A stretch of 64,000 nucleotides of DNA. It comes from Corynebacterium genitalium ATCC 33030. Lineage in GTDB: Bacteria; Actinomycetota; Actinomycetes; Mycobacteriales; Mycobacteriaceae. Shown piece after piece: positions 13,414 to 64,000 of this stretch. Within the stretch, counting starts at the first letter, position 1; the number at the start of each line of letters is the position of its first letter. The notes under the pieces were generated by a model. It worked only from the letters and a program-made list of their open reading frames with translations. It ran no database searches and was not told the DNA's origin. The stretch is taken from the NCBI RefSeq assembly GCF_000143825.1, contig NZ_CM000961.1:1-64000 (forward strand). Reading direction: 5' to 3'. Position numbers and translations under genes: made by a program.

Positions 13414-14268
13414 ATGGCTCCTATGGGGGACTCAACATTAGTTCGTTTGGCGCCCGGTGTGAATGTGCTGGTCCGTGGGGAGGGATCGGTGCAGTTCGGG
13501 CTGGATGCGTCGAGAAGCGCGGTGCTGGACACGGCGCACCCGCGCCAGCTCAAGGCCATCCTGGATGCCATGATCGAGCCTACGGCCGTGCGCGATGTTC
13601 TCAACGCCCTGCGAGGCATTCCCGAGATTGATGAGCCGGAGGCGCGGGCGCTGGTCAACGATTTGCTGAACTACCGCATCCTCGTCGACGCCAGCGAACG
13701 CACCGTCGTGGTGCTCGGCACTTCAGCTTTGGCGGACGAGGTGGTGCGGTTGCTGCGCACCGGCGGGATCACAGTGCGCACACCGCTTATCGACGAACCC
13801 CTCCACCCCTTCTTTTCCCTCCTCTCCCCTGATACACCCGTCGTGGTTGTTGACCAGGTGCCCCAGCTGGTGCGGCTGCGCGAGGCGCTGGCCGATCACA
13901 CCGGGTGGATCATCCCGGTATTCACGTTGGATTCGCGGGTGGTGGTCGGCCCGGCAAGCCTCGACGGGGACGGTCCGTGCCTTGAGTGTGTGCTCATGCA
14001 CGCCCAGGAGCGCGACCCGCACACGCATGTCACCGCTACGGCACTGTCGCAGGCCTCGAGCACGAATGCCCCGGATCCTGCGGTGGTCGCCGCTGGCGCA
14101 GCTGCCGCCGCGGTGATCGTGCGCCGGTGCGCGGAGGTGCCAGAACCTCCCGGTGTGCTCGTTCCGGAAGCGGAGCCCGGAATCGCGCTGATCATCGACC
14201 CCTTCGGGCCGCAGTGGGTGGCTGAGCACCCCCTGGGCACGCACAAGAGCTGCCCTGCCTGCTTGTGA
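13414..14268 (+). CDS. ThiF/TOMM-cyclodehydratase-like protein with zinc tetracysteine
   Basis: 284 residues with a Rossmann-like segment (TVVVLGTSALADEVVRLL) and two CxxC pairs, PCLECVLMH (about 190) and KSCPACL at the extreme C-terminus, which form the structural zinc site in ThiF/E1-like and azoline-cyclodehydratase partner proteins. No precursor peptide or YcaO gene is nearby, so a role in a RiPP pathway is doubtful; orthologues sit beside uvrD2 in many actinobacteria. The ATP-binding arginine finger of E1 enzymes is not evident. The start could be ATG 13414 or 13423; neither has a clear ribosome-binding site. Confidence 0.7.
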   Translation: MAPMGDSTLVRLAPGVNVLVRGEGSVQFGLDASRSAVLDTAHPRQLKAILDAMIEPTAVRDVLNALRGIPEIDEPEARALVNDLLNYRILVDASERTVVVLGTSALADEVVRLLRTGGITVRTPLIDEPLHPFFSLLSPDTPVVVVDQVPQLVRLREALADHTGWIIPVFTLDSRVVVGPASLDGDGPCLECVLMHAQERDPHTHVTATALSQASSTNAPDPAVVAAGAAAAAVIVRRCAEVPEPPGVLVPEAEPGIALIIDPFGPQWVAEHPLGTHKSCPACL

Positions 14269-14284
14269 GGGGGCACGGAAGGGG

Positions 14285-16342
14285 TCAGCGGAAGTCTTCC
14301 AAGACGGCCAGCACGTCCTCGCCGTACTGTTCCAGCTTGGACGGGCCGATGCCGGAGATGTCCAGTAGTTCTGCGAGGCTTGCCGGCATCGCCTCGACGA
14401 CAGACAGAAGTGTCGCATCAGTGAAGACCATGTACGGCGGGTGCTGCTTCTCGCGGGCGGTGTCCAAGCGCCACTGCTTCAAGGCTGTGAATGCGGCCTC
14501 GTTGTAGGTCGGCTCGCACTCCTCGTGCCGGCCGAGGGTCTTCTCGGCGGGCGTGGTGATGGGGTTGCCGCACACCCGGCATCTCTTCGGACGCTTGAGG
14601 CGGTCAGGGGTGGTCTCGACGTCGAGCTGCGGGGCAATGCCGTCGAGGAACCGGGACCTGTCGCGACTCTTCCGGCCGCCCTCCTGGCGGGCAAACGACC
14701 ACGACAGGTGCAGGTGCTCGCGGGCGCGGGTGATGCCCACGTAGAACAGGCGCCGCTCCTCCTCAATCTGCTCGTCGCCAGCCTTGATCGCATGCGAGAT
14801 GGGCAGCGTCTTCTCCACCAGGCCAACAAGGAAGACCGCATCCCACTCAAGGCCTTTGGCGGCGTGCAGGCTGGCCAACGTCACACCGTCGACAGCCGGG
14901 GGCTGCTTCGACTCCGCGCGCTGGCGCAGCGACTGCAACACTCCGGGCAGCGAGTCTGCTTCCCCAGTGTTCACGATGTCGGCGATGAGCTCCACCAACG
15001 CGTTGAGTGTCTGCCACCGTTCACGCTGCTGCGCACCCTCGGGTTCCGTGGCACTCAGACCCAGCGGGGCGAAAGCGGTGCGGGCGACAGTCACCGGGTC
15101 GTCCGGCAGGTCGTTGCGGCGGGTGGCCTGCACGAGCACGCCGATCGCCTCGCGGATCTCTGGGCGGTTGAAAAAGCCTTCGCCGCCGCGGACTTGGTAG
15201 ACGATGCCAGCGTCAGACAACGTCTGCTCGAACACCGCCGACTGCGCGTTGAGGCGGTAGAGGATGGCGATCTCGCGGGGTGGGACGCCGCCGTCGATAA
15301 GCGTGCGGATCTGTGCCGCGACTTCGCGCGCCTCCGTCGGCTCATCAGCATAGGACGCGAACGTCGGCTCCGGGCCTGGTGCGCGCATGCCCTGCAGCTC
15401 AAGGCGGGTGCCAGCAGCGCGGCCGGTGGCTTTAGAGATCACGGTATTCGCCAGGTCTGTGACCTCGGGGGTGGATCGGTAGTCGCGCTGCAGCTTGACC
15501 ACGGTCGCGTGCCCGTACGTCCGCGAAAAGTTCAGCAGATAGTCCGGGGAAGCCCCGGTGAAGGAGTAGATGGTCTGGTTGGCATCGCCGACGACAGTCA
15601 GATCATCGCGCTGGCCCAGCCAGCCTTCAAGCACACGTTGCTGGAGCGGGGTGACATCTTGGTACTCGTCGACGACGAAGGTTTGGTACTGGGTGCGAAA
15701 CTCCTCGGCTACCGCCGGCGCGTTCTCCAGGGCACCGGCGACGTGGAGCAGAAGGTCATCGAAGTCGAGGGCCATGCCGTCGGGGCTCGTCTTGGATTGC
15801 TCGTACCGCTTGTACACGGCGGCGACCTTCTCCGCGTCCGTCGGCGGCTCACGGCGAGAGTTAGCGATGGTCTCGGCGTAGCTTTCCGGGGTGACTAGAG
15901 ACGCTTTGGCCCACTCGATCTCGCTGAGCAGGTCACGCACCATATCCTTGTGGGACTCGAGCCCCACAGAGCGCGCTGCGCGACCGACCAGCGGGAATTT
16001 GTTGTCAATGAGGTGCCACGGCATGTCGCCTGCTACCTGCGGCCAGAAGTAACGCAGCTGGCGCAACGCTGCAGCGTGGAACGTGCGGGCCTGCACACCG
16101 CCAATGCCCATGTCGCGCAAACGGTCACGCATCTCCCCTGCCGCACGCGAGGTGAACGTCACGGCGAGCACGCGCTGCGGGGCGACAAAACCTTGATCGA
16201 TGAGGTGCGCGATGCGGTAGGTGATGGTGCGCGTCTTACCGGTGCCAGCGCCGGCGAGAATGCACACCGGCCCGCGCGGAGCGGTGGCGGCGACGAGCTG
16301 ATCGGGGTCGAGCTGAGTTTCGAGCTGGCTCAGGTCGATCAT
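14285..16342 (-). CDS. uvrD2: ATP-dependent DNA helicase UvrD2
   Basis: 685-residue SF1A helicase. Walker A GAGTGKT lies at 31-37, Walker B in VVDEYQDVT, motif III around VVGDANQTIYSF and motif VI near the LFYVGITRAREHLH block. The C-terminal extension carries the tetracysteine segment (RCRVCG...HEEC) and an HRDC domain over about 600-685, the combination that defines actinobacterial UvrD2. It unwinds 3'-tailed duplexes in repair. The ATG lies 3 nt after the stop of the K+ channel gene, so it is cotranscribed in the adnA-adnB-channel-uvrD2 run. Confidence 0.95.
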   Translation of the reverse strand: MIDLSQLETQLDPDQLVAATAPRGPVCILAGAGTGKTRTITYRIAHLIDQGFVAPQRVLAVTFTSRAAGEMRDRLRDMGIGGVQARTFHAAALRQLRYFWPQVAGDMPWHLIDNKFPLVGRAARSVGLESHKDMVRDLLSEIEWAKASLVTPESYAETIANSRREPPTDAEKVAAVYKRYEQSKTSPDGMALDFDDLLLHVAGALENAPAVAEEFRTQYQTFVVDEYQDVTPLQQRVLEGWLGQRDDLTVVGDANQTIYSFTGASPDYLLNFSRTYGHATVVKLQRDYRSTPEVTDLANTVISKATGRAAGTRLELQGMRAPGPEPTFASYADEPTEAREVAAQIRTLIDGGVPPREIAILYRLNAQSAVFEQTLSDAGIVYQVRGGEGFFNRPEIREAIGVLVQATRRNDLPDDPVTVARTAFAPLGLSATEPEGAQQRERWQTLNALVELIADIVNTGEADSLPGVLQSLRQRAESKQPPAVDGVTLASLHAAKGLEWDAVFLVGLVEKTLPISHAIKAGDEQIEEERRLFYVGITRAREHLHLSWSFARQEGGRKSRDRSRFLDGIAPQLDVETTPDRLKRPKRCRVCGNPITTPAEKTLGRHEECEPTYNEAAFTALKQWRLDTAREKQHPPYMVFTDATLLSVVEAMPASLAELLDISGIGPSKLEQYGEDVLAVLEDFR

Positions 16343-16345
16343 CGG

Positions 16346-17475: not shown

Positions 17476-20400
17476 TTAATGCTGCATGTCTATATCGGAC
17501 TCTAGACCTCTTGCCGCGGCGGTTTGCAGCAGCTCCTCCAGCTCGCCGCGTTCTGGCAGGTCGTGCGGGGCGAAGTCTTCCCCGGTGCGGACGTAGAAGA
17601 ACACTGCGTTGACTGGCAGCCCGTCGCCGGCGATGCGTTTCCACGCCTCCCGGTAGACGGCCAGCTGCAGTTTCGCGGCCCGCATCTCCGTCGCCTGGGG
17701 TTTGGCGCCGGTCTTCCAGTCGACGATGGTCCAGCTGCCGTGCGGCGCCTCTGGTGTGGGCGCGTCACGGTACACAGCGTCAATGCGGCCGCGCACGCTC
17801 GCCGAGCCCAAGTCGATCTCAAAGGGGTGCTCGATGTGCGCCGGAGCGCGCTGCGCCCAGTGGCTGGCCTCAAAGGACGCCTTGAGGCGTGCCAGTGTGG
17901 TCGCGTCGACGTCGGGTTCGGTGTTGCCGGGCAGCTCGTCGTCGTCGAGAAGCGGGCGCGCACCGAAGAACCCCTCGATCCATTCGTGGAACGCTGTTCC
18001 GCGCTTGGCATAAGAGTTCGGTTTGAACGGCACCGGGCGGCGCGCGCGGCGGGCGAACTGCTCCGGGTTGGCGCGCAGCGCGACGATGTCGGAGGCGGTG
18101 AGCATTGCGGGCATGATGACCGGCACCGACGGGCTCATGGTGGCCTCATGCTCCTCGATCAGCGCTGTCACATCGCGCTCCCACAGCCCGTAGAGCTCAC
18201 CGGCGGTGAGCTGCGGCAGGTCCTTAAGGGCCGCGTTGACGCGCTCAGCGGCATCCACTGCGGCAGGCTCGGCGCTGTAGTGGGGCCAGAAGCCTTCGCG
18301 TTCGCGAATGTCCGTCAGCTCATCCGTCACTGTTCCGTCCCACCAGGACAACACCTCCGCCATATCCCGGAAGGGCAGGAAGTGGGAGTAGGGCTCCACC
18401 GGCTTCTTCCGCGTCGGAGAGATCCCGGACGCCGTGACCAAAAGACGCCGCTCCGCCCGGGTCACCGCGACGTAGAAGAGCCGAGCGGACTCTTCGGCAA
18501 GCTCAGCGGTCTTGTCCTTCTTGTACTGGTTGGTGAGCTTCTGGAAGTCGCTGCGGGTATCGGCTTCGGCGAGTGCGGTGTAGGAGTCGTCCGGGACCGT
18601 CGCTACGTAGCCGAGGAAGGTCTCCGCCGTTCCGCCGTACGTTGCGGCGTCAGCGTGGGCGACAGCGACGGTGCGCCATTCCAAGCCTTTCGCCTTGTGC
18701 GCGGTGAGGATCTGCACCCGGTCGCCGGTGTTCGCGACAGTGCCGGGCGCCAGACCGTCCTCATGCTCGGTGGCCAACTCCAGGTAGTTCAGGAAGCCTT
18801 CCAGATCCGCACCCGGATACGACGCGACCGTTTCAGCGAATTTGTCCAGATGCACAGTGCCGGTGTCGGAGGGGCGGGAGAGCACCTCGGTGCGGATGCC
18901 GAAGATGGAGACGATGTCATCGAACAGGTCCGGCAGGCGCTTGCCCAAGCTGCGCATGCGCAGGGCGCGCAGCTGCGAGGACAGCACCTGCAGGCGCGCC
19001 AGACCTTCCTCCGTGTAGCGCTCCGGCTCACCGAGGTCCGCCACCGCGTCGGCGAGGCCAACGGAGCGCTCGTTCTCACCGACGGCGTTCTCAGCCTCGC
19101 GGATCAGGTCGGTGAGCTGGGCTTGCAACCGTTCCCGCGGATCTGCATCAGGCCCCAGCCCCGCTACAGCGCTGTCGTCTTGGTCGTGCGCCCGGCCGCC
19201 GGCCAGGTTCACTGCTCGCCGAGACAAGGCCGTGATGTCTTTCAGCCCCAATCCGCATGCGGGGCCAGCCAGGATGCGCAGAGCAGCGGCAGAATCCTGC
19301 GGGTGAACAAGCATTTTCGCTACAGCAACCGCATCGGCGACCTCCGGCACGGTCAGGAGACCTGCCAGACCGACAATCTCATAAGGGATGCCGCGCTCCT
19401 CCAGAGCTTCAGCAATCAGTGCGGACTGTTTGTTCTTGCGCACCAGCACAGCCGAGGAGACATCACCGTGCTCCGCCAACTGCTCATGGAAGTCCGCGGC
19501 CAGCATGTCAGCGACGGCGGCGATTTCCTCGTCCACAGGCCCGTAGAAGCCCACCTCCACGTTACCGGGGTCAGACGCCGGATTCGGATTGAGCGGTTCG
19601 ACGGCGCGCTGCGGCCCCGGGGCGCCGAGCACGGCCGACGACACTGAGTTGGCCAGTGCCAGCACTTCCGGTGGGTTGCGCCATGAGGTGGTGAGCTGGG
19701 CTTTCGGGGCGGAGGCACCGTCGGCAAGCGGAAAGTCGTCGACGAACGCCTGCAGATTAGCGGCAGTGGCTCCGCGCCAGCCGTAAATCGCCTGCATCGG
19801 GTCACCGACGGCGGTGACGGTCAGCGGGTGCGGGTGCCGCGCGAGGTCGTCGCGGTTTTCGCCGAACAAGCTGCGCAGAAGCACGCGCTGGGCGTGGGAG
19901 GTGTCCTGGTATTCATCCAACATGACCACCCGGAAGCGGCCGCGTTGGCTCTCCCCGACCGACGGGTGGTTACTGGCCAGTTGCGCCGCGACGGACATTT
20001 GCTCGTTGAACGTGACCACTCCGCGTTCGCGCAGCTCGCGGCTGAGCTCCTCCGCGAGGTCGGTGTAGGCGGCGCGAAGACGCTGCTTGTCTATCCAGCC
20101 GCGGACTTCCTTGGCGTACTGCTCTTTCGCTCTGCCGCGGGGAAGGGCTGCGACGTTATCAATGAACGCCTCCGCTTCCTCCCGCACCCGCGACGGCGGC
20201 ATGAGGTCGTTGCCCATGTTGGCCACGAGCCGCAGCAGAGTGTCCACGACGGTGCTCACACCGGGGTTCGCATCGACACCGTCGAGCAAAGCGCCACCGT
20301 GATTGCTCACTACGTCCCAGGCGATGGAATGCAGCTCGGCATCGGTGATAAGCCGCGCGTCAGGCTCCACGGGGACGAGCAGGCCGTATTCGCGGATGAG

Positions 20401-20778: not shown

Positions 20779-23700
20779 GGGTGGTCACCTCCCCTTCCGG
20801 TTGCACCGGACAGATTGCTTTGACATGGCAAAAGTCGCAGTGCTTGCCTGTCACAGCGCGCAGCCGCGGCCCCGTCATCTCCGCAGGCAGCGTGGCAATG
20901 CGCGCCGCGAACTCCTCGAGTTGCTCCGCGTCCTTTGGGGCTTGGTGGGCAGCGGTCACCTTCACCTGGTCGCTGCCAGGGTAAATCAGCGTTCCCCCGC
21001 CGACGTCGAGGGAGTCGGTCTCACCCGCCGTCGCCACCGAGGCGTCTGTGCCCTCCCTGAGAGCCCCGCGCGACAGTGCGAGCTGGTAGGCGAACAGCTG
21101 CGGGTTTTCTTCCGCCTCTGCGGCAGACGGATGATTCTTGCCGGTCTTCAAGTCGACGATGTGGACCGCTCCGCTTTCCTCGCGCTCCAGCCGGTCGATC
21201 CGACCGCCGATGCGCAGCCCCGGTGCGACCTCCACGTCGACCGGAACTTCTGTGTCCACAAGCTCGAACGTGCCGCGCGTCTCCTCGACCCATTGCGCCG
21301 CGCGACCGAGCAGACGCGTGAACTCCCCCAGATCGCTGACCTCTTTCCAGGACGGAACGGTGAACAGTGCGCGGTATGCCTCCAGCGTGTCCGCTTGGGC
21401 GAGTTCCACATCGGCCCCGTTTCCGACAGCCTCGAAGAAGTAGTGCGCGAGCGTTCCGCGTGTCATTGCGTCGCTCGACGCAGGCGCGACATCGCGCTCC
21501 AGCACGTTGCGCATGGGGCATTCCAGTAGTCCTTCAATGCGCGAGGGCGACAGGCGTCCAGGCGGTTCCACGCCTTCGCTTATCGACGCCTCCCTGATCC
21601 CCCACCACTGACCCGGATCCGCCCCAGGCACACCGGCCTCGGCGAGGCGGGCGAGCTGGCGGGCAGCCTGTAGTTTGACGTCCTCGCTGGAGGACTCGTC
21701 GGTGATGGCGCGGCGCAGTTCAGCGACAATGTCTTCGACTGCGAGCACCCGGACCGGTGCCACATCGACGTGCACTTCTTCTCTGCCGGTGGTACTAGTG
21801 TCCACCCCGTCGAACAGGGTCTGCTGCTCAGCAGCTCCGGACGCGGCAGTGCCGGTGCTGACATGCTCCGGAATGGTGCCACGCGCGTCGGCGAACTGCT
21901 GCACGAAGCGCGAGGGCTCGATGACCTCATCCCCGTCCGGAGCGTCCACAGCGGTGACGATCACCTGCTCCGTCGCACGGGTGACAGCGACGTGGAAGAG
22001 GCGGCGTTCCTCCTTGAGGCGGTCCACGGTGTGAGAGACCGGTGTCGCTGGATCAATGCCTTGATCAACAAGGTCGATGAGGTCTTCCTGGCGCATGAGC
22101 GTGCCGGTCTCGCTCAGTGTGGGCCAGGACAGCTCTTGCACTTCGCTGACGATGACGCGGGCGAATTCACGCCCCGCCACACCGTGGGCCGTGAGCAACG
22201 GCACCGCGTCCGGAACGGCGGTGCGCCGGTCGCGCACACCGGTGGGCAACTCCTGCTCCTCAATGTGCGCGATGAAAGCCTCAATGGTGGCAGTCGGGCG
22301 ACGCTCAGTGAAGTCACCCGCTGCGTCGAACAGCGCCATCATCGCGTCAAGGTCACGGTCTGCCTGGGATCCGGCCGCCCCGCCGCGCAGCGCAATGGCC
22401 ATGAGGGATTCTGCCAGACCAGTCTGCGCCCAGACGGCCCAGAGCACCTCTTCGACGCTGCCGCCGTCGTCAAGCGAAGTGCGCCCAGCTTCCAGAACCC
22501 CGCGGATGCGGTCCAGGATGTCCAGCTCGCGCTGGGTGAGTATGGCTCCGAAATCGGGCAACTCTCCGCGCAACGCCAGCAGTTCGCTCAGCGTGTCCTC
22601 CGCGCGGACCTCTGGCCGCCAGCGGCGCAGGCCGCGCAGCAGACGACGCAACGTGACCGGATCTGCACCACCGACCGGTCCGAGCAGGAGCTCACGCCAG
22701 TGCGTGGCATCCAGACCGTTCAGAGCGCGCAGACCCAGCAGCATCGCAGCGACAATGCGTTGCTCCCCCAATACGAGGTCCGTCGGGTTGATCGCCACTG
22801 GCACCCCTGCTTGGAGGAGCGTGCGACGCAGCGGTTCGATCATCCCTACCGAGCGCACGACGACTGCCATGTCCCGCCACGGCACCCCCTCTTCCAGATG
22901 GGCGCGGCGCAAGGTGTCGGCTACGAACGCGTTGTTCATCGCGCCATCCGGAGCGATGACAGCGCGTGCAGTGGGAGTGCGCCGGGAAACACCGAGGTCG
23001 ATGGTGGGCGCGTCCAGATTCTTGAAGAACAACGGGGAGGCGCCACGGAACCGGAATACAGCCTGCTCCTCGTCACCACCCACCACGGCAAGGTCCGCCT
23101 CCGCGATGAGTTGGTTCACAAGGATGCCGGAGGCGGGGTCGAGGTGCTGAGCATCGTCGATAAACACTGTGCCCCACGTGCGCGGCAGCGGGCGCCGCAC
23201 GACCTCGGCCACGAGCTCGGAGGCGGAATAACTGCGAGCGCCGTAGAGCGCCATGACATCCTGGTACTCGGCGAGGAAATCCCCCGCCGCGGACCAGACC
23301 GGAATGCCGTGAGTGCGGCCCATGTCCCGCAGCTGACCGGGAGTGAGGGTGCGTTCAACGGCGCGGAGCAGGAAATCGCGCAGCTGGCGCGCAAACCCGA
23401 CCATGGGCAACGCAGGCCGCAGCTCCTCCGGCCACGAGCCAGTGCCGTCGGCGGCATTGCCCTGCAACAGCTCACGGATGGCGAAGTCCTGCTCAGCACC
23501 CGAAATCAACCGAATCAGGGTCGCCGCGGCGACCGCCGGATCCTCGCTAGCGCGAAGCAACGCGAAGGCCAAGGAGTGGACGGAGCGGGCGATCGGCTCG
23601 TCAGCGACGAACCCGGAAGAGGTGAGTTTCTCGGACAATTCCTCGCGCACGCGGGCTGCCGACTCCTTCGACGCTGTGACGAAGACGATGCTGGAGGGGT

Positions 23701-24151: not shown

Positions 24152-24871
24152 CTAGAGCGCCAACAAACCCCGAACGCGCTCGATCCGCTCGGTCTGTGCC
24201 GCCGCCACGTGAGGGTTACCGGCCGCCAAGATCGCCCTGTACTCCAACGCGCGCTCGCACAGGAAGAACAGGTCGGGGATGTGGGACCAGCGGCTGAGGA
24301 CGTGATCGTCGACGGCGCCGGCCAACATCCCGTCGATAAGCGTCAGGGCCGCAGTGTAACCGTGCGGGCGCGGCTCGGCGCTGGGCACAATGTCGCTGAG
24401 CGCGGGTGCGAGCGATCCGGAGAAAAGGCAACAGGCGAGGAAATCCGCGTGGGTGAGCTGCCCGCCCTTGACGGCGACGCCGGGCGCGGAAGACCAAGCG
24501 GCACGCTCGGCGCGGGCCCAAGCATCATCACGCTGGATGGCGGGGGCGGGGAAATGGGCGACAGCGTCGTCGAAACGCAGGGCTGCGGCGATCGCCTCGT
24601 CGATGCGGTGGCCGGGCTGCCCCTCGATGAAGTCGGTGGCGCGGAAACCGGCCAGAGCAAAACGGCCGTCGGTGGTCCGCACGGGGCGCGCAATCCGCAG
24701 GCCCGGAACGGTGACCTTCTCCCGCAGTTTCGACGACCACGCGGCGTGCGCAGGCGCGGAAGAAATGACGATGCGCCCGTAGCGCACCCCGTTGCCCCAC
24801 TCGTTGCCGAGCGGCTCCGGGCGTGCGTCATCGACTTGGAAAGACGTCAATACATGCCCCGGAATCGCCAT
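24152..24871 (-). CDS. TIGR02569 family protein
   Basis: 239 residues of the actinobacteria-specific TIGR02569 family (Rv3205c-like), with a fold distantly like aminoglycoside phosphotransferases: GRIVISSAP, a basic-rich segment, then LTHADFLACCLFSGS where a kinase catalytic loop (H-x-D) would lie. Activity is unknown. ATG 24871 is chosen because AAAGG precedes it; an upstream alternative at 24916 adds a poor extension. It lies 14 nt after the DUF3152 gene, forming an operon. Confidence 0.8.
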   Translation of the reverse strand: MAIPGHVLTSFQVDDARPEPLGNEWGNGVRYGRIVISSAPAHAAWSSKLREKVTVPGLRIARPVRTTDGRFALAGFRATDFIEGQPGHRIDEAIAAALRFDDAVAHFPAPAIQRDDAWARAERAAWSSAPGVAVKGGQLTHADFLACCLFSGSLAPALSDIVPSAEPRPHGYTAALTLIDGMLAGAVDDHVLSRWSHIPDLFFLCERALEYRAILAAGNPHVAAAQTERIERVRGLLAL

Positions 24872-29130: not shown

Positions 29131-29280
29131 GCATCTCATCCTATGTGGCGTCCGCGATTTGACGAACTCCCCTTGCGCGGTTTTCCCGCGGTGCCCACGT
29201 TTGTGCACCACAACGCGGTTTTCGCTTATCGACGCTTCGTCCCCCTCCCCTCCAAACCCCAGCCGGCAAGCAGCACTGAA

Positions 29281-29296: not shown

Positions 29297-29298
29297 AT

Positions 29299-30451: not shown

Positions 30452-31026
30452 TAGTTCGCGTCCTCCAAACCGATTCCTTGCGCGTTTGCTACGTCCTTCA
30501 ACAACCCGCGCAGCTGTTTTCTTCCACGGTGCAGCCGGGACATCACTGTGCCGATGGGAATGTCCAGCGCTTCGGCGATTTCCTTGTAGGCCAAACCCTC
30601 GACGTCGGAGAGGTAGACGACCATGCGGTAGTCGTCGTTAAGCGAGTTCATCGCGTCGGCGATTTGCTGGTCCGGAAGATTGTCCAGCGCCTCAACCTCA
30701 GCCGATTGCAGACCTGTCGAATCGTGCGAGCTGGTGGTGTACAGCTGGCGGTCCGTGACGTCTTCGGCGGACGTCTCCAACGGGCGGCGCTGCTTCTTGC
30801 GGTAGCTGTTGATGTACGTGTTCGTCATGATGCGGTACATCCACGCCTTCAAGTTCGTGCCCTCTTTGAAGGAATCGAACGCGTTGAACGCCTTGAGGTA
30901 GGTCTCCTGCACCAGGTCCTCTGCGTCTTGCGGGTTGCGCGTCATCCGCAGGGCGCCGCCGTAGAGCTGGTCCAGCAGCGGCATGGCCTCCTCGGTGAAG
31001 CGGCGCTCGAGGTCTTTATCGGGCAT
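30451..31026 (-). CDS. sigH: ECF sigma factor SigH
   Basis: 191 residues, group 4 sigma. Region 2 spans [20 protein letters not shown] through [20 protein letters not shown] and region 4 is the HTH in [20 protein letters not shown]. SigH drives the thioredoxin, mycothiol and heat-stress regulon in Corynebacterium. The start is ATG 31026: TATAGT ends exactly seven nt upstream, so the mRNA should be leaderless; the longer frame from 31056 would begin upstream of this promoter. It is divergent from the YbaK-like gene. Confidence 0.95.
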
Positions 31027-35934: not shown

Positions 35935-38505
<2,571 letters not shown>

Positions 38506-38649: not shown

Positions 38650-38669
38650 CGTCGATAAGCGGCGAAGGC

Positions 38670-50570: not shown

Positions 50571-51955
50571 GACCGGATGATTCCCAGCACTTCGTCGACC
50601 ACAGCGTCGACCTCAGCCTGCGTTTCGGCTTCGACGTTCAACCGCAGCAGCGGTTCGGTGTTGGACGCGCGGACGTTGAACCACGTCTTCGACCCCGCCA
50701 AAGAGACGGTCACACCGTCGAGGGTGTCCACCGATTCCGTCCGGTCGGCGAACACGTCGACGACGGCGTCCATTTTGGCCTGCTGGTCGGCGACCTCGGA
50801 GTTGATCTCGCCGGAAGCGGCGTAGCGGTTGTACTGCGCCATCAGCTCGCTCAACGGCTTGTCGTGCTCCGCCAGGGCCGCCAGCACGTGCAGGGCGGCC
50901 ACCATGCCCGAGTCCGCGTTGAAGAAGTCGGCGAAGTAGTAGTGCGCCGAGTGCTCGCCGCCGAACAGCGCGCCCTTCTCCGCCATCTGCGCCTTGATGT
51001 AGGAGTGGCCCACACGCGTGCGCACACCCTGGCCGCCCTTCGCGTCGATCAGCTCGGGCACGGCCTGCGAGGTGATCGCGTTGTAGATGATCGTCGCGCC
51101 GGGATTGTCCTCCAGCGTGCGCTCTGCCACCAGTGCGGTGATCGCAGACGGGCTCACCGGGTCGCCCTTTTCATCGACGACAAAGCAGCGGTCAGCGTCA
51201 CCATCAAAGGCAAGGCCGATATCTGCGCCCTGCTTGACGACGAACCCCTGCAGATCCCGCAAATTCTCCGGCTCCAAGGGGTTGGCCTCATGGTTGGGGA
51301 AGGTGCCGTCCAGTTCGAAGTAGAGGGGGCGAACATCTTGGTCCCCAAGCACCGCGGGCACGGTGTGTCCGGCCATGCCGTTGGCGGCGTCGACCGCGAT
51401 GACGAGCTTCCGATCTTCGGGAAGCGGCACCAGTTCGCGCAGGAAGGAGGCGTAGTCGTCGAGGATGTCGTCTTCCTTGACGGTGCCGGTGGGCCCGTCG
51501 AAGGCGGGAGCGCCGTTTATAAGCATCTGAGTGATCTCCGCCAAACCGCTCTCCTGGCTGACCGGTGTCGCGCCCGCGCGGCAGAGTTTGATGCCGTTGT
51601 ACTGGGCGGGGTTGTGCGAGGCGGTGAACATTGCGCCTGCGCAGCCGAGCGTGCCGGCTGCGAAGTAGAGCTGGTCTGTGGAGGTCAGTCCGAGCGCGAC
51701 GACGTCGAGGCCCTGGCTGGTCACGCCGTCAGCGAACGCGGCGGCGAGCTCCGGAGAGGACGGGCGCATGTCGTGGCCGACGGCGACGGTCTTCTCCCCT
51801 TCTTCGCGCAGGATGGACGCGAAGGCGGCGCCGGCATCGAAGACGAAGTCGCGGCCAACAGTGGCCTTATCGGCGGGCTCGACCAGACCGCGGATGTCGT
51901 AGGCCTTCACTGCTTGCGTGACAGCCTCGCGGCTGCGCTTAAGTGGTTCGCTCAT
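50567..51955 (-). CDS. manB: Phosphomannomutase / phosphoglucomutase
   Basis: 462 residues. Active-site TASHNPAQYNG with phospho-Ser113, metal loop DGDADR, sugar loop GGEHSAHYY, phosphate loop RASNTEP. Converts mannose-6-P to mannose-1-P. ATG 51955 follows TAGGAT by eight nt (leaderless). Confidence 0.95.
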   Translation of the reverse strand: MSEPLKRSREAVTQAVKAYDIRGLVEPADKATVGRDFVFDAGAAFASILREEGEKTVAVGHDMRPSSPELAAAFADGVTSQGLDVVALGLTSTDQLYFAAGTLGCAGAMFTASHNPAQYNGIKLCRAGATPVSQESGLAEITQMLINGAPAFDGPTGTVKEDDILDDYASFLRELVPLPEDRKLVIAVDAANGMAGHTVPAVLGDQDVRPLYFELDGTFPNHEANPLEPENLRDLQGFVVKQGADIGLAFDGDADRCFVVDEKGDPVSPSAITALVAERTLEDNPGATIIYNAITSQAVPELIDAKGGQGVRTRVGHSYIKAQMAEKGALFGGEHSAHYYFADFFNADSGMVAALHVLAALAEHDKPLSELMAQYNRYAASGEINSEVADQQAKMDAVVDVFADRTESVDTLDGVTVSLAGSKTWFNVRASNTEPLLRLNVEAETQAEVDAVVDEVLGIIRS

Positions 51956-54448: not shown

Positions 54449-55537
54449 CTACGCGTCCGGGGAGAAGCGCACACCCAAGTCCGGAATGTTCACGCCCGGC
54501 CAGATGCGCATGCCTCCCTGCAGTTCACACCGTGCGCCGATCTGCACGCCATCGCCGATCACGCAGTCCTGGATGCGCGCGTTCGCACCGATGCGCGCGC
54601 CGGAGGCGATGATGGAATCGCGAATCATGGCGCCTGGCTCGACGGTCACTCCGTCGAAAATCACGCAGTCGTCTAGACGGCAGCCCGCGCCGATGGTAGA
54701 GCCGCGGCCGACGAAGGTTCCGCCGACGAGGATGGCACCACCGGCAACGCCGGCGGAATCGTCGACAAGCGATTCGCCCGTGCGCCCCTCAAGGAGAGGC
54801 GAGGGAGCAATGCCGCGCACAAGGTCGGACGAGCCCTGGACAAAGTCGGACGGGCGACCCATGTCGCGCCAGTACGTTGTGTCCACGTGGCCGTAGACGC
54901 GGGCGCCGGACTTCAGCAGGCCGGGGAAGGTCTCGCGCTCGACGGACACTGCGCGGCCCTGCGGGATGGACTGGATCACGTCGCGCTGGAAGACGTAGCA
55001 GCCGGCGTTGATCTGGTCGGTCGGCGGCGCCTCAGTCTTCTCCAGGAAGGCCTGGACGCGGCCGTCGGCATCAGTGGGCACGGAACCGAACTGGCTCGGG
55101 TCCGGCACGCGCACGAGGTGAAGGGTGACATCCGCCTCCCGCTCGGCGTGGGTGGTCAGGATCTGGCCCAAGTCAGCACCGGAGAGGACATCGCCGTTGA
55201 AGATCATCGCGGTGTCATACCGCAGCCGGGACTCGACGTTGCGGATCGCGCCGCCGGTGCCCAAGGCTTCCTCCTCCACAACGTATTCGATCTCTAGGCC
55301 GAGGTCGGAGCCGTCACCGAAGTGCTTCTCAAACACCTCCGCCTTATATGAGGTACCCATGACCACGTGCTTGATGCCAGCGGCCTGGATCCGCGCAAGA
55401 AGGTGCGCCAGGAACGGGTAGCCAGCAGTAGGAAGCATCGGCTTCGGCGTGGAGACTGTGAGCGGGCGAAGGCGCGTGCCTTGGCCGCCGACAAGAACAA
55501 CGGCGTCCGTCTGCGCAGGATCAATCGTAGAAACCAT
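54449..55537 (-). CDS. manC: Mannose-1-phosphate guanylyltransferase
   Basis: 362 residues. NTP-transferase start VLVGGQGTRLRPLT, FNGDVL, then a left-handed beta-helix (hexapeptide repeats: GAILVGGTFVGRGSTIGAG). Makes GDP-mannose (also called RmlA2/ManC). Completes the manA-manB-manC route. ATG 55537 follows TAGGTT by six nt (leaderless). Confidence 0.92.
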   Translation of the reverse strand: MVSTIDPAQTDAVVLVGGQGTRLRPLTVSTPKPMLPTAGYPFLAHLLARIQAAGIKHVVMGTSYKAEVFEKHFGDGSDLGLEIEYVVEEEALGTGGAIRNVESRLRYDTAMIFNGDVLSGADLGQILTTHAEREADVTLHLVRVPDPSQFGSVPTDADGRVQAFLEKTEAPPTDQINAGCYVFQRDVIQSIPQGRAVSVERETFPGLLKSGARVYGHVDTTYWRDMGRPSDFVQGSSDLVRGIAPSPLLEGRTGESLVDDSAGVAGGAILVGGTFVGRGSTIGAGCRLDDCVIFDGVTVEPGAMIRDSIIASGARIGANARIQDCVIGDGVQIGARCELQGGMRIWPGVNIPDLGVRFSPDA

Positions 55538-55622: not shown

Positions 55623-56501
55623 CTACCCCACAGCACGGGCGAGCAGGGCGCGCGCCTTCAGCCCTGACCACAGCACCAGCCGCAGCGGAGCCTCCCACCA
55701 GTGCGGATGGCGGTCAGCCTGGAACCGGTAGGCGGAGTCGTGGTGCGCCGGCGTGGTCACCGCGGAGTACTTCTTCGCGGCGTGGCCCTGGTCGTGAGTG
55801 ATGAGGGCATCGGGGCAGAACAGGTTCGTCCACCCGGCGCGGGTCAAGCGCTCGCCAAAGTCAATGTCTTCGAAGTACATGAAGTAGCGCTCGTCGAAGC
55901 CACCGAGCGCCTCAAACGCATCCCAGCGGACCAGCAGGCATGACCCGGACAGCCATCCAGCGCGGCGCAGGGTGTCCATATCTTCCCCAGCCTTGTAGGC
56001 GCGGCTGAACGGATTGCCCGGCCAGAACGGGTACAGCACAGCATGGCCAATCCCGGTGACCAGCGTGGGCACTTCGCGTGCCGACGGATACGCCGACCCG
56101 TCCGCCTCTTGAATCCTCGGTCCTACTGCCCCGGCTTCCGGGTGCGTCCGTGCGCACTCGATAAGCGCATCGATGGAACCGGGCAGGAACTCCACGTCGG
56201 GGTTGACGATGAGGAAGTAGGTGGGGTTGATGTGGCCGGTGTTTTTAGCGTCGATAAGCGAACGCGCTGCGAAGTTGATCGCGGGGCCGTACCCGATGTT
56301 GCCGCCTGTGGGCAGGAAATCCACGCTGTCGTTGGCGCAGGCGACATCCTCCGGCACCCCGTCGGTGGAACCGTTGTCCGCGCAGATGAGGCGGGTGGGA
56401 AACACGGTTGCCTCGGCAAGCGATTCCACTAGCGCCGGCAAATGCCTGCCCGGCGAGTAGGTCACGGTGATCACTGCCAGCGGAGTTTCGGGGTTGGTCA
56501 C
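55623..56501 (-). CDS. wbbL: Rhamnosyltransferase WbbL (GT2)
   Basis: 292 residues. GT2 fold: VITVTYSPGRHL, CADNGSTDG, VNPDVEF (DxD-like), and GSCLLVRWDAFEALGGFDERYF with the ED catalytic site in MYFEDIDF. WbbL adds rhamnose to GlcNAc-PP-decaprenol, the arabinogalactan linker, and is essential in mycobacteria. GTG 56501 follows TAAGCT by eight nt. Confidence 0.9.
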   Translation of the reverse strand: MTNPETPLAVITVTYSPGRHLPALVESLAEATVFPTRLICADNGSTDGVPEDVACANDSVDFLPTGGNIGYGPAINFAARSLIDAKNTGHINPTYFLIVNPDVEFLPGSIDALIECARTHPEAGAVGPRIQEADGSAYPSAREVPTLVTGIGHAVLYPFWPGNPFSRAYKAGEDMDTLRRAGWLSGSCLLVRWDAFEALGGFDERYFMYFEDIDFGERLTRAGWTNLFCPDALITHDQGHAAKKYSAVTTPAHHDSAYRFQADRHPHWWEAPLRLVLWSGLKARALLARAVG

Positions 56502-58393: not shown

Positions 58394-59086
58394 ATGAGCT
58401 TGCTCACACCCCTCCTCTCCGCCGACCCCGCCAGCCCCAGGCTGACCGTCTACGACGAGGTCGCAGGCACCCGCATGGAGTTCTCGGCGATGACGTTGGA
58501 CAACTGGGCCAACAAGATTGCCAACATGCTTATCGACGAATTCGACCTCGACCCCCACGATCCCTTCGGGGAATCCCCGACCATCATCGTGGACCTGCCA
58601 GTGTCGTGGCAGGCGGCAGTCATCCCGGTAGGCATATACAACGCGGGCTTGAGCCCGTATGTGGACGTCAACCGTGAGAAGCACCAGTCCTCTGCGGGTC
58701 CGAGACTCGTGTTCACCACCGTTGAGCGGGCGAAGGATTGGGACGGCGTACCGGATGTCGTCGTGGTCTCCAACGACCCATTCGGCCGGGGCGTGGTCGA
58801 ATCCGGCGGCACTCTCCCACCGGGGCTGGTCGACTTCGGCCCGACGGTGCGGTTCTACGGCGACCAGTTCTATGACAACCCTTACGATCTGAACAGCTGG
58901 GTTCTCCCAGAGGACGGCCCCGAGCGCTACCTGGTCCCCGGCTGGACCACGGGCCCGGAATTCGAGCGCCGGATCATGTGCCCGCTGGCTGCCGGCGGGT
59001 CCGTCGTGGTCATTGCAGGCGTGGCGTCCGCCGAGCGCGTAGAGCAGATCATGGAGGCAGAGAAGGTCACGGAGACGCTCAGCTAA
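58394..59086 (+). CDS. TIGR03089 family protein
   Basis: 230 residues (Rv3268-like). Resembles the N-terminal part of AMP-binding enzymes (MEFSAMTLDNWANKIANML; VDLPVSWQAAVIPVGIYNAGL) but ends before any adenylation core, so probably a non-catalytic relative. ATG 58394 follows TACTAT by exactly seven nt. Confidence 0.85.
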   Translation: MSLLTPLLSADPASPRLTVYDEVAGTRMEFSAMTLDNWANKIANMLIDEFDLDPHDPFGESPTIIVDLPVSWQAAVIPVGIYNAGLSPYVDVNREKHQSSAGPRLVFTTVERAKDWDGVPDVVVVSNDPFGRGVVESGGTLPPGLVDFGPTVRFYGDQFYDNPYDLNSWVLPEDGPERYLVPGWTTGPEFERRIMCPLAAGGSVVVIAGVASAERVEQIMEAEKVTETLS

Positions 59087-60078: not shown

Positions 60079-61260
60079 CTACGCTCCTGTTCCCTTCACG
60101 ATGATCTCCGCGGCCGCCTTCGCCGTCTCCAGCACAGTATCCAGGTCGTGGCCCGCGACGTTGACGTGCCCCATCTTGCGCCCCGGGCGGTAGCCCTTGC
60201 CGTAGAGGTGCACTTTCGCCTCCGGGTAGCGGCGCATGACTTCTGCAACGCGCTCCTCCATCGGCTGGGTTGGCTCGGTCTCCCCGCCGAGAGTGTTCAC
60301 CATGACGGTGAACGGCGCGGTCATCTCCACCGAACCGAGTGGCCAGTCCAGCACTGCGCGCAGGTGCTGCTCGAACTGGCTGGTCACGCAGCCGTTCTGC
60401 GTCCAGTGGCCAGTGTTATGCGGACGCATGGCCAGCTCGTTGACGATCACCTCGTCACCGTCGGCGAACAGCTCCACGGCCAGCACGCCGGTCACGCCGA
60501 GCTCTTCGGCCACGTTCATCGCTAGCTCTTGGCAGTAGGTGGCCATCTCCGGCGCCATGTTCGGCGCAGGCGCGATCGCTTCCACACAAATGCCGTCGCG
60601 TTGGCGGGATTCCACGACCGGCCACGCCCGGATCTCGCCGGACGGGGTGCGCGCGACCATCGCGGAGAGTTCGCGGTCAAAGTCGATCTTGCGCTCCGCG
60701 TACAGCGGGGTGCCGTCTGCCAAAAGCTTATCGACGAGCTCACCCGCCCCCTCCCGCGACTTCGGGAACCACACACCGTGGCCGTCGTACCCACCGCGGG
60801 TGGCCTTGAGGCACATCGCGCCTTCGACCGAGTCGAAGAAGGTCTCCGCATCCTCGACGCTCTCAATGGCCGCGAACTCCGGGACTGGCGCCCCGATCTC
60901 TGCCATCTTGCGGCGCTGTTCCAGCTTGTCTTGGGCGTAAATGAGTGCCTGGGGTTGCGGCTGCACGCTCACCCCGGAGGCAATGAGCTCATTCAAGAAT
61001 TCATTAGGAACATGCTCGTGGTCAAAGGTAGCGGCGGCGGCGCCGGAGCAGACTCTTTTGACGTCGTCAAGCACTGTGTAATCGCCGATGACCACGTCGC
61101 CGAAAACCTGCGCGGCGGACGCGTCGGCGGAGCTGGCGAGCACCCGGGGTTTCAGGCCCAGCTCAATAGCTTCGGTGTGCATCATCCGGGCAAGCTGGCC
61201 ATCGCCGATCACGGCGAGAATGGGCATTCCCTGGGGGTCTCTGTTCGCTGCGTCACTCAC
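60079..61260 (-). CDS. purK: N5-carboxyaminoimidazole ribonucleotide synthase
   Basis: 393 residues, ATP-grasp. GDGQLARMM start, ATP-binding CLKATRGGYDGHG, metal site VNELAMRPHNTGHW. Makes N5-CAIR from AIR. GTG 61260 follows TAGAGT by eight nt. Confidence 0.96.
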   Translation of the reverse strand: MSDAANRDPQGMPILAVIGDGQLARMMHTEAIELGLKPRVLASSADASAAQVFGDVVIGDYTVLDDVKRVCSGAAAATFDHEHVPNEFLNELIASGVSVQPQPQALIYAQDKLEQRRKMAEIGAPVPEFAAIESVEDAETFFDSVEGAMCLKATRGGYDGHGVWFPKSREGAGELVDKLLADGTPLYAERKIDFDRELSAMVARTPSGEIRAWPVVESRQRDGICVEAIAPAPNMAPEMATYCQELAMNVAEELGVTGVLAVELFADGDEVIVNELAMRPHNTGHWTQNGCVTSQFEQHLRAVLDWPLGSVEMTAPFTVMVNTLGGETEPTQPMEERVAEVMRRYPEAKVHLYGKGYRPGRKMGHVNVAGHDLDTVLETAKAAAEIIVKGTGA

Positions 61261-61507: not shown

Positions 61508-62233
61508 ATGACCACGATTGGCCGCCACACGATTTTCCAAAACTCCCTCATGTCCGCGCTTCTCGACGGCATCTATGACGGTGAACTCACCATCGGCGAC
61601 ATGCTGTCTCGCGGCAACTTCGGCCTGGGCACCTTCGACGCCCTCGACGGGGAGATGATCATCCTGGACGGCACGTGCTACCAGCTGCGCGGCGACGGCT
61701 CCGCCACCATCGCCGACCTGGATCAGAAGAGCCCGTTCGGGCAAGTGACCAACTTCGTGCCGAAGATCGTCGCCGACGCACCGAAGGGGATGCGCCGCAG
61801 CGAGCTATCCGCATTCATCGACGAGCTGCAGCCGTCCGGGAATTACCTGCACGCTGTGCGCATTACCGGCAGCTTCGACACCGTGACCACCCGCACGGTG
61901 ACCAAGCAGGAGAAACCCTACCCGCCGATGCAGGACGCCGTTGCCGACGACAAAGAAATCAAGTTTGAAAACGTCTGCGGCATCATCGGCGGCTTCCGCA
62001 CCCCCGGCTACGCGAAGGGCATTGGTGTGCCGGGCTGCCACGTGCACTTCATCGATGAGGACCGTACCACCGGCGGCCACGTGCTGGACTACACCGTTCA
62101 TGAGGCCGTGATTGAGCTCTGCCCCGCCACGGACATCGAACTCCACCTGCCGCTGACGGCCGACTTCGCCGCGGGCAACCTCTCACCGGAGGATCTGGAC
62201 CAGCAGATCCACGACACTGAGGTGAAAAGCTAA
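61508..62233 (+). CDS. budA: Alpha-acetolactate decarboxylase
   Basis: 241 residues. IFQNSLMSALLDGIYDGELT, GNFGLGTFDALDGEMI, zinc His block PGCHVHFIDEDRTTGGHVLDY. Converts acetolactate to acetoin, diverting pyruvate. ATG 61508 follows TACCAT by seven nt. Absent from the mycobacterial synteny, so probably acquired with or before the Abi gene. Confidence 0.93.
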   Translation: MTTIGRHTIFQNSLMSALLDGIYDGELTIGDMLSRGNFGLGTFDALDGEMIILDGTCYQLRGDGSATIADLDQKSPFGQVTNFVPKIVADAPKGMRRSELSAFIDELQPSGNYLHAVRITGSFDTVTTRTVTKQEKPYPPMQDAVADDKEIKFENVCGIIGGFRTPGYAKGIGVPGCHVHFIDEDRTTGGHVLDYTVHEAVIELCPATDIELHLPLTADFAAGNLSPEDLDQQIHDTEVKS

Positions 62234-62276: not shown

Positions 62277-62429
62277 CGATGCTTCGGTTCTAGGACCGGT
62301 ATTCGGACGTGACCCCTTCGGCTGGAGCTATCCAAAGGGCCAATACGGCCCCTGTGCTCTCTCAACATAAGATAATAGATCGGTAGTCGAGGAAAATCAA
62401 GAGACGCATCGGTTCGAAGGGGAAATCGG

Positions 62430-63236: not shown

Positions 63237-63670
63237 AGCAACTGCCGGCGGATGAGCTCCTCCACCCGCTTGGAGCGCCCCACATCGGGGAAGTACACCG
63301 GCTGCGCGTAACCGAACACAGCGATGCTCATTCCTCCGCGGTAGCGCCGGGCACCGCGGATCTGCGCCAACGGGATCGACTCGGTCCGGCCGCGGCCGAT
63401 GTAGAGGACACGCTTGTTAGTCACCACGAAGCGTTGCCGGCGCGAGCGCACGAGCGGAAACACAAACCGCCACAGGGCGAGCACCGCCCACACCGCCACG
63501 GCACCGTTGCGGAAAGCTACATCCACCCTGTTGACGTCCATCCATCCGATTGCCATCCACGACAGGGCGGTGATGACGATCAGCTCGAGGAAGGGGAACA
63601 CCAGCGTCGTCATCGGCGGCGCCATGTCCGCCAGGACGACTTCTCCCCTACCGAGCTTGATCTTGGACAC
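63233..63670 (-). CDS. PH-domain membrane protein (YdbS-like)
   Basis: 145 residues. Two membrane helices (about 18-42 and 55-75), then a bacterial PH-like domain (RRQRFVVTNKRVLYIG, SIPLAQIRGARRYRG). Rv3278c-like, function unknown. GTG 63670 lies 10 nt after the birA stop; same operon. Confidence 0.88.
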   Translation of the reverse strand: MSKIKLGRGEVVLADMAPPMTTLVFPFLELIVITALSWMAIGWMDVNRVDVAFRNGAVAVWAVLALWRFVFPLVRSRRQRFVVTNKRVLYIGRGRTESIPLAQIRGARRYRGGMSIAVFGYAQPVYFPDVGRSKRVEELIRRQLL

Positions 63671-63680
63671 GTCAGGGAGT

Positions 63681-64000
63681 TTAGTTGGCGGGTCGCAGGT
63701 GAGTCACGTCGCCAGTCGAGTAGCTCACCCCATCCACGACTACTTCGCCATGCTTATCGACGTCGTCGACGACCCCTTCCACGTCACCCTGCGCCGTCGA
63801 CAAGCGAACGCGTTGGCCGATGGTGGCCGAGACTGCCCTGTAATCACCTAGAAGCACCGCGTCGCGATTCTGCCACTGGGTGAGCCGCTCGCCGAGCGCG
63901 CGCAGCAGGTCGATGACAAATGAGTCCCACTCAATAGTGATGCCTTCGAGGTTGAGCGCCGTGGACCAGTCCGTGGGCAGATCCTCCGCACGCCACGCGA
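63681..64000 (-). CDS. birA: Biotin protein ligase BirA, C-terminal part (5' end outside window)
   Basis: About 105 codons in the frame ending VDGVSYSTGDVTHLRPAN. ERLTQWQN, LLGDYRAVSATIGQRVRLST and AQGDVEGVVDDVDKHGEVVV match the C-terminal SH3-like domain of BirA. It should biotinylate acyl-CoA carboxylases. The catalytic core lies beyond 64000. The motif GCTTATCGACG occurs antisense at 63752-63762. Confidence 0.9.
   Translation of the reverse strand, partial: AWRAEDLPTDWSTALNLEGITIEWDSFVIDLLRALGERLTQWQNRDAVLLGDYRAVSATIGQRVRLSTAQGDVEGVVDDVDKHGEVVVDGVSYSTGDVTHLRPAN

What the first reader, a model, noticed from the sequence alone, without database searches (positions are those of the whole stretch)
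13785..63762. Over-represented 11-mer GCTTATCGACG, 18 exact copies in 50 kb
I find 18 exact copies on both strands (11 plus, 7 minus), about one per 3 kb from 13.8 kb on, against roughly 0.03 expected from base composition in the whole window. Twelve encode Leu-Ile-Asp in the sense frame using the codon CTT, but four are read in other frames from the opposite strand (in adnA, tobH, purK and birA) and two are intergenic, so selection must act on DNA, not protein. A variant GCTTATCGATG lies at about 10475. The island contains none. It could be an uptake signal, recombination (Chi-like) site, nucleoid-protein or segregation motif; the lack of strand bias argues against a polar signal.
Basis: seen in the sequence. 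Interest (0 to 1): 0.78.

Follow-up and report, generated by a model that had tools for sequence, protein, structure and literature searches.

The report
DNA self-recognition motif in Corynebacterium genomes
The repeated 11-letter word is the commonest form of a short DNA mark written more than a thousand times into this Corynebacterium chromosome; relatives carry altered or replaced versions, which fits a password for taking up DNA from kin.

Summary
The window holds exactly 18 GCTTATCGACG; the chromosome 527, strand-balanced. The real element is a spaced core, GCTT-NN-CGACG (42 in the window; GCTTNNCGAYG 1567 genome-wide against 111 for reversed letters), followed here by a strand-specific C-rich, G-poor tail of about 35 bp. 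Genes hold 304 copies; codon shuffling gives 25. In the two best frames 47% and 71% of permissible positions carry it. It abounds in 186 of 242 Corynebacterium genomes and in none of 149 genomes of other genera. There are dialects: one clade has CGATG for CGACG, and one genome without the motif has 1144 copies of another spaced word, CGCGNCGTCA, at that level in no other of 242. Copies turn over by point changes and are scarce around phage terminase genes. No replication-strand bias, against Chi or KOPS. Best explanation: a DNA-uptake (self-recognition) sequence as in Neisseriaceae and Pasteurellaceae, here in an actinobacterium. Uptake and receptor are unproven; competence genes occur in motif-less genomes too.

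The parts
13785..13795 (+). core, spacer AT (GCTTATCGACG)
15292..15302 (-). core, spacer AT
21578..21588 (+). core, spacer AT
24331..24341 (-). core, spacer AT
29224..29234 (+). core, spacer AT, intergenic
31390..31400 (+). core, spacer AT
32176..32186 (+). core, spacer AT
33728..33738 (+). core, spacer AT
34630..34640 (-). core, spacer AT
35889..35899 (+). core, spacer AT
36348..36358 (-). core, spacer AT
38650..38660 (-). core, spacer AT, intergenic
48907..48917 (-). core, spacer AT
49799..49809 (+). core, spacer AT
56249..56259 (-). core, spacer AT
58528..58538 (+). core, spacer AT
60726..60736 (+). core, spacer AT
63752..63762 (+). core, spacer AT
7825..7835 (-). core, spacer AC
9770..9780 (+). 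core, spacer TT
10260..10270 (-). core, spacer GA
12747..12757 (+). core, spacer CT
13508..13518 (-). core, spacer CT
17943..17953 (-). core, spacer CT
19719..19729 (-). core, spacer GC
22465..22475 (-). core, spacer GA
26434..26444 (+). core, spacer GA
27266..27276 (+). core, spacer TT
28606..28616 (-). core, spacer TT
30633..30643 (-). core, spacer AA
32328..32338 (-). core, spacer GA
32929..32939 (+). core, spacer GA
36882..36892 (-). core, spacer GG
39534..39544 (+). core, spacer TT
41193..41203 (-). core, spacer AA
44649..44659 (+). core, spacer GG
46546..46556 (-). core, spacer GT
51232..51242 (+). core, spacer GA
54760..54770 (-). core, spacer GT
61062..61072 (-). core, spacer GA
61558..61568 (+). 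core, spacer CT
63795..63805 (-). core, spacer GT
13797..13831 (+). example of the C-rich, G-poor 3' tail (+2 to +36 after the core at 13785)
   Evidence: the tail is a statistical feature over all copies; this is a clear example
29236..29270 (+). example of the C-rich 3' tail of an intergenic core

Best explanation
The motif is most likely the DNA uptake (self-recognition) sequence of a natural-transformation system in Corynebacterium. Inferred mechanism: a surface DNA receptor, perhaps a Tad/Flp minor pilin or a partner of ComEA, binds the spaced core GCTT-NN-CGACG, in this lineage with its C-rich 3' tail, on double-stranded DNA. Pulling by the Tad pilus and entry through ComEA/ComEC then favour fragments that carry it. 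Because incoming kin DNA recombines, copies accumulate at a large share of the places that protein coding tolerates. When the receptor changes, the genome drifts to a new dialect; when uptake specificity is lost, the motif erodes. Shown here: the motif, the tail in this genome and in parts of the genus, the high filling of permissible positions, dialects, a replacement word in one genome, scarcity around phage terminase genes, point turnover in one region, and lack of replication polarity. Inferred: uptake, receptor and pilus role.
For: 1567 GCTTNNCGAYG in 2.35 Mb against 111 reversed; H. influenzae is reported to have about 1300 uptake sequences (PMC5217627, passage). Single changes at the nine fixed positions fall to 0.2-1.9 times expectation, except T to G at position 3 (3.3). 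Codon-shuffle mean 25.2 against 304 observed, all six frames enriched. 196 of 418 and 56 of 79 permissible positions filled in the two best frames; the other four frames 18-31%; reversed-letter control 0-5% in four frames, but 9 of 23 and 1 of 4 in the other two. Tail C-rich and G-poor in sense, antisense and intergenic copies, graded with core quality. Dialects: G000 CGACG 19x, CGATG 0.9x; G001 CGATG 16.6x, CGACG 4.3x. In a tree of 42 TadA rows the 12 D1 rows form one clade (93/87) and the 13 D2 rows lie in one clade of 16. G012 has 1144 TGACGNCGCG (the same word on the other strand) against 50 reversed and no clear GCTTNNCGAYG excess (93 against 68). Eight terminase regions: 17 copies in 160 kb (reversed control 7), against 43 in 100 kb (control 1) from the same five genomes. 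20 of 48 site comparisons conserved against 7.0 expected (overlapping comparisons). ComEA, ComEC, DprA and a Tad-type locus are present. The Pasteurellaceae case looks alike: two subclade-specific consensuses, mutation in place, shared flanks, competence genes in all species (PMC1626085, abstract).
Against: ComEC (241 of 242), DprA (80 of 80), the Tad locus (20 of 20 loci picked by their TadA) and ComEA (30 of 30 loci, those with the best ComEC scores) occur also in motif-less genomes, so presence of machinery does not track the motif. No receptor was identified; the Tad pilin reading frames look intact with or without the motif. No report of natural transformation in Corynebacterium was seen in the listings (20 of 209, 20 of 44, 15 of 105, 12 of 34 and 1 of 1 papers listed). 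Scarcity around phage genes would also be expected of Chi. The tail is weak in deep lineages (C-G 0.06-0.09 in G054, G056, G070), weak in 43 copies from five other motif-rich genomes (C 0.34, G 0.28) and absent in G012, so it is not a general part of the system.
Confidence: 0.74

Rival explanations
1. Chi-like recombination hotspot: the motif tells the AdnAB-like end-resection machine, encoded in this window, to stop degrading and load RecA.
For: High copy number and scarcity around phage genes fit Chi; an AdnAB-like pair is present; the strand-specific tail would suit an enzyme that reads one strand.
Against: No replication polarity: 174 of 329 copies on the leading strand as set by GC skew and 262/265 by strand genome-wide, whereas Chi is oriented with replication in E. 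coli (recalled). AdnB-like protein in all 56 genomes tried, with and without motif. Dialects and the replacement word in G012 are odd for a core repair enzyme. The high filling of permissible sites exceeds what I recall for any Chi.
Confidence: 0.1
2. A chromosome-wide binding site for a nucleoid or segregation protein (KOPS-, SlmA- or MatS-like).
For: Dispersed, DNA-level, sharply defined site.
Against: Spacing as random (CV 0.955 against 0.98) and density 0.40-1.00 per kb in all 23 sampled stretches, no polarity, absent from 51 congeners and from 149 genomes of other genera.
Confidence: 0.07
3. A motif spread by a mutational or conversion drive with no function of its own (HIP1-like, or tied to a methyltransferase and repair).
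For: High filling of synonymous positions; the cyanobacterial HIP1 repeat shows that such words can exist with unclear function (recalled).
Against: Nine positions plus, in this genome, a 35-bp asymmetric tail are held together; simple mutational bias does not make a composite, non-palindromic element or put another word in its place.
Confidence: 0.06
4. Protein- or codon-level artefact (Leu-x-Asp with a favoured codon).
For: 12 of 18 window copies read Leu-Ile-Asp.
Against: Codon-shuffle mean 25.2 against 304; antisense and intergenic copies enriched with the same tail; CTT is a minor Leu codon, 8.8%.
Confidence: 0.01

Closest known systems
Uptake signal sequence (USS) of Pasteurellaceae, e.g. 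Haemophilus influenzae AAGTGCGGT
   Same: Short core, abundant (about 1300 in H. influenzae: PMC5217627, passage), extended flank, two subclade-specific consensuses, arises by mutation in place, competence genes in all species (PMC1626085, abstract). Both strands and mostly in genes (recalled).
   Different: Different sequence; bipartite core with a free 2-bp spacer; flank is a one-sided C-rich, G-poor tail instead of AT-rich tracts; no excess of close pairs, whereas USS pairs often form terminators in H. influenzae (PMC5217627, passage); host is an actinobacterium; uptake untested.
DNA uptake sequence (DUS) and its dialects in Neisseriaceae, read by the minor pilin ComP
   Same: Thousands of copies and dialects that follow the phylogeny (PMC3630211, abstract); ComP as receptor (PMC6370729, passage).
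   Different: No ComP-type receptor found; a Tad/Flp-type locus was seen here, a type IVa pilus was not searched for; one lineage has an unrelated word.
Micrococcus luteus transformation by Flp/Tad pili with ComEA/ComEC
   Same: Actinobacterium with comEA, comEC and Flp pili needed for transformation (PMC6370729, passages).
   Different: No uptake sequence is mentioned for it in the passages I read; here the motif is known and transformation is not.
Chi sites
   Same: Over-represented, non-palindromic DNA-level word.
   Different: No replication polarity; longer, spaced and, here, tailed; dialects; high filling of permissible positions. (Features of Chi recalled.)

Membership tests
DNA uptake sequence (USS/DUS) | Hundreds to thousands of dispersed copies far above chance | tested here: met
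DNA uptake sequence (USS/DUS) | Acts as DNA: both strands, all frames, intergenic too | tested here: met
DNA uptake sequence (USS/DUS) | Dialects that follow the phylogeny | tested here: met
   the tree holds 42 rows, 12 of the 165 genomes rich in the exact word
DNA uptake sequence (USS/DUS) | Arises by point mutation in place, not by insertion | tested here: met
   (one region of about 20 kb, four genomes; 48 overlapping comparisons)
DNA uptake sequence (USS/DUS) | Scarce in newly acquired DNA | tested here: met
   (8 terminase regions in 5 genomes, 7 of the 8 hits over the family cut-off; prophage boundaries not mapped)
DNA uptake sequence (USS/DUS) | Competence machinery present | tested here: met
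   but present in motif-less genomes as well, so it does not discriminate
DNA uptake sequence (USS/DUS) | Motif raises uptake or transformation of DNA | not testable with these tools
   needs uptake assays
DNA uptake sequence (USS/DUS) | Cognate surface receptor | not testable with these tools
   Tad pilins aligned; nothing points to one of them
Chi site | Orientation bias along the replichore | tested here: not met
   174 of 329 leading; 262/265
Chi site | Recognised by RecBCD/AddAB/AdnAB | not testable with these tools
   AdnB-like protein in 56 of 56 genomes regardless of motif
KOPS / FtsK polar motif | Strong polarity from origin to terminus | tested here: not met
Paired terminator repeats | Frequent close pairs | tested here: not met
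   30 gaps under 200 bp against 39.8 (sd 5.6) expected at random

The most novel reading that the evidence does not exclude
Corynebacterium runs a sequence-specific self-recognition system of its own kind: a mycomembrane actinobacterium whose Tad/Flp machinery reads a spaced core which, in the lineages best sampled here, is joined to a strand-polar C-rich tail into a composite of about 46 bp. The tail could set which end or strand enters. The recognised word can be exchanged whole (GCTTNNCGAYG for CGCGNCGTCA) within one genus, so that the words partition the genus into gene-exchange groups. This would be the first such system outside the two proteobacterial families known to me.
Probability: 0.55. 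Interest if true: 0.92.

Novelty: new variant of a known kind. Interest (0 to 1): 0.86.

Why it matters
If true, sequence-specific DNA uptake is not a peculiarity of two proteobacterial families. It would exist in Actinobacteria that have an outer mycomembrane, in a genus of skin, nasal and industrial species (recalled) for which I saw no natural transformation described in my searches. It would give a genetic tool (add the word to DNA), a way to predict which species exchange genes, and a natural experiment on dialect change. It also explains synonymous codon choices at the positions where the core fits.

Tried and rejected
Exact 11-mer as the element: rejected, the two central bases are free. 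Presence of ComEC, Tad, AdnB or DprA as the discriminating gene: rejected, all are universal or nearly so in what was examined. Two hints remain. TadA scores at least 168 bits in 36 of 37 motif-rich genomes but under 165 bits in 28 of 38 motif-less ones (80 genomes, the other five being weak); this is not corrected for phylogeny, and the odd rich one, G198, is a fragmented assembly without a TadA hit. DprA is weak in motif-less G029 and G112. Even spacing and close pairs: not found. Decayed remnants in motif-less genomes: none clearly seen (small samples; one-mismatch ratios of 1.3-1.6 in G043, G206 and G232 and 1.7-2.4 in weak G028 were not followed). Top words in G216, G007 and G018 were mostly local repeats, those of G227 partly so. 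G206 has TCGCCGAGG (50 against 5.8 in 100 kb), which may be codon usage at 75% GC; not followed. Tad pilin alignments showed no clear dialect-linked residue by eye. The C-rich tail as a general part: not borne out.
Full report
Observation. The window holds exactly 18 copies of GCTTATCGACG (11 plus, 7 minus). The own genome G000 (2.35 Mb, one contig, the window being its first 64 kb) has 262 + 265 copies and none of the reversed word. In a 464-kb sample the word occurs 115 times against 1.49 expected from an order-4 Markov model, the highest ratio of the 11-mers seen at least 15 times.

The real element. Across 504 kb of G000, GCTTNNCGACG occurs 329 times against 17.5 expected. Changing any of the nine fixed bases brings the ratio to 0.2-1.9, except T to G at position 3 (68 against 20.4). 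All 16 spacers are used, AT best (130 against 1.7). The window has 42 such cores, 18 of them with AT. After the core, positions +2 to +36 are mostly C-rich and G-poor on the same strand, also after correction for codon position in genic copies; the C excess is gone at +37 (one later peak at +44) and small G deficits run to about +41. The composition change is seen in sense, antisense and intergenic copies. The tail skew (C minus G) is strongest for AT spacers (0.267), lower for GT spacers (0.162) and the partly tolerated GCGT form (0.153), and near zero for changes of the A at position 9 to C or G or of the T at position 4 to C. In this genome core and tail thus look like one unit.

The tail elsewhere. 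It is clear in G001 (C 0.44, G 0.23 at +11 to +35; 68 copies) and in 87 copies from G009, G152, G171 and G183 (C 0.46, G 0.21). It is weaker in 27 copies from G004, G027, G096 and G106 (C 0.40, G 0.25) and in 43 copies from five other motif-rich genomes (C 0.34, G 0.28), weak in G054, G056 and G070 (C minus G 0.06-0.09), and absent around the different word of G012.

DNA-level drive. Shuffling synonymous codons within genes gives 25.2 copies on average against 304 observed, with enrichment in all six frames. Of all positions where synonymous codons would permit the core, 196 of 418 (sense) and 56 of 79 (antisense) in the best frames carry it; the other frames are filled to 18-31% on small numbers. 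The reversed-letter control is at 0-5% in four frames but at 9 of 23 and 1 of 4 in the other two. Sense copies outnumber antisense ones because the opportunity is greater. Spacing is as random (CV 0.955 against 0.98, sd 0.05) and there is no excess of close pairs. Taking GC skew to define the replichores, 174 of 329 copies lie on the leading strand.

Across the genus. GCTTATCGACG: 165 of 242 genomes have 20 or more, 75 have 12 or fewer, two lie between. Thirteen genomes, 12 of the poor ones and G004 (one of the two between), have 133 to 478 GCTTGCCGATG (80 genomes examined). Eight more, 7 of the poor ones and G188, are at least 10-fold over the reversed control for GCTTNNCGAYG (which examined 67 genomes of the genus and 13 reached through loci). 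Together 186 of 242 are rich, 5 weak (about 3- to 5-fold: G028, G032, G156, G185, G231), 51 without (at most 2.7-fold). The rich genomes outside these 67 rest on exact-word counts. The genus is Corynebacterium by inference: the genome behind L170 (titled Corynebacterium sp., a MAG) is rich (1924 against 137), and the one behind L205 (titled C. urealyticum, a MAG) has the same counts as member G228, without motif. Among 149 genomes of 55 other genera of the order no ratio exceeds about 2.1.

Dialects and replacement. G000: CGACG 19-fold, CGATG 0.9-fold. G001: CGATG 16.6-fold, CGACG 4.3-fold, with the tail on both. In samples of six motif-less genomes (G011, G043, G065, G131, G142, G232; 60-140 kb) and G206 (100 kb) the counts are 0 to 5 and the ratios 0 to 3.0. 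In a TadA tree of 42 rows the 12 D1 rows form one clade (93/87) and the 13 D2 rows lie in one clade of 16 that also holds motif-less G043 and weak G032 and G185. The motif also occurs in lineages that branch elsewhere (G054, G070, L170), with poor support for their order, so it may be old and lost several times. G012 lacks it (93 against 68) but carries CGCGNCGTCA: 28 in 60 kb against 1.7 expected, most single changes near background (up to 5.2-fold on small counts), spacer A or G in 26 of 28, often followed by TYA. Genome-wide G012 has 1144 copies (searched as TGACGNCGCG), 563/581 by strand, against 50 reversed. Of the other 241 genomes the highest ratio is G021 (143 against 30) and the highest count G069 (159 against 87). 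So in one lineage the word appears to have been replaced whole.

Turnover and foreign DNA. In an orthologous region of about 20 kb of G000, G009, G171 and G183, copies in aligned sequence differ by point changes in place. They are kept in 20 of 48 pairwise site comparisons against 7.0 expected from flanking windows of the same codon phase; three further comparisons were set aside as gapped or unaligned (comparisons overlap; G000 also has sites in stretches not aligned there). Terminase genes were found in 5 of 56 rich single-contig genomes, 8 places, 7 of them over the family cut-off. The 8 regions of 20 kb around them hold 17 GCTTNNCGAYG (reversed control 7), against 43 (control 1) in 5 stretches of 20 kb from the same genomes; one region (G044) holds 6 of the 17.

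Machinery. G000 has ComEA (SLBB + helix-hairpin-helix; NCBIfam ComEA repeat model over its cut-off), ComEC (Pfam Competence; NCBIfam ComEC N-terminal model over its cut-off) and a Tad-type locus whose ATPase matches the NCBIfam TadA-family model over its cut-off. The Flp-like protein matches DUF4244; the TadE- and TadF-like ones match Tad models only below the cut-off; the TadZ-like one has no hit; TadB, TadC and the neighbouring helicase, CspA and TopA were named by me from sequence and position. ComEC is found in 241 of 242 genomes, DprA in 80 of 80, the Tad locus in 20 of 20 loci fetched around TadA (TadZ not detected in G065), ComEA in 30 of 30 loci, those with the best ComEC scores, the AdnB-like protein in 56 of 56, with and without the motif. 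The Pasteurellaceae show the same picture of competence genes in all species with dialects by subclade (PMC1626085, abstract). This is the main weakness: no gene that tracks the motif was found. TadA tends to score lower in motif-less genomes, but phylogeny was not controlled.

Interpretation. An uptake sequence explains the high filling, strand symmetry, dialects, replacement and scarcity around phage genes with one known process: biased uptake followed by recombination. Chi explains them less well because of the missing polarity and the dialect changes. The uptake-sequence families known to me are those of Neisseriaceae (PMC3630211, abstract) and Pasteurellaceae. In Actinobacteria, Micrococcus luteus is transformed with the help of Flp pili and has comEA and comEC (PMC6370729, passages). 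Searches of the paper library for the words and for Corynebacterium with uptake terms (listings only, 40 of 125 and 15 of 94 papers listed for the two word searches; one search found none) showed no description of this motif. One spaced-motif survey of prokaryotes names Corynebacterium only for CRISPR-related pairs in the passages I saw (PMC5217627). A Chi listing was not read further. Subscription papers and preprints were not searched.

Limits.

Noticed in passing
G012, L081, L082, L164: A Corynebacterium genome without the GCTT motif carries 1144 copies of CGCGNCGTCA (often followed by TYA), strand-balanced, seen at this level in no other of 242 genomes.
   Followed up: partly
G021: A GC-rich motif-less genome with the next highest ratio for TGACGNCGCG (143 against 30 reversed); not examined further.
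   Followed up: no
G206, L074-L078: In a 75% GC genome TCGCCGAGG occurs 50 times in 100 kb against 5.8 expected; may be codon usage.
   Followed up: no
G029 C1:1842183-1842692 and L024; G112 C12:221750-222433: Two motif-less genomes have strongly diverged DprA matches (60 and 129 bits; the best match is at least 189 bits in the other 78 of 80 genomes); G029 also has a diverged ComEA hairpin domain (34% identity).
   Followed up: no
G065, G142, L205 (C. urealyticum): Long-branched TadA in a group without the motif; relaxed or altered Tad pili in motif-less lineages would fit a link between pilus and motif.
   Followed up: partly
G043 against G004/G027/G001: A motif-less genome inside the CGATG dialect clade in the TadA tree, with Tad and DprA present: a good pair for finding a lost receptor.
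   Followed up: partly
G230, L111 and L112: CTGGTGGCGTC dispersed six times in 40 kb against 0.11 expected; may be another word or codon usage.
   Followed up: no
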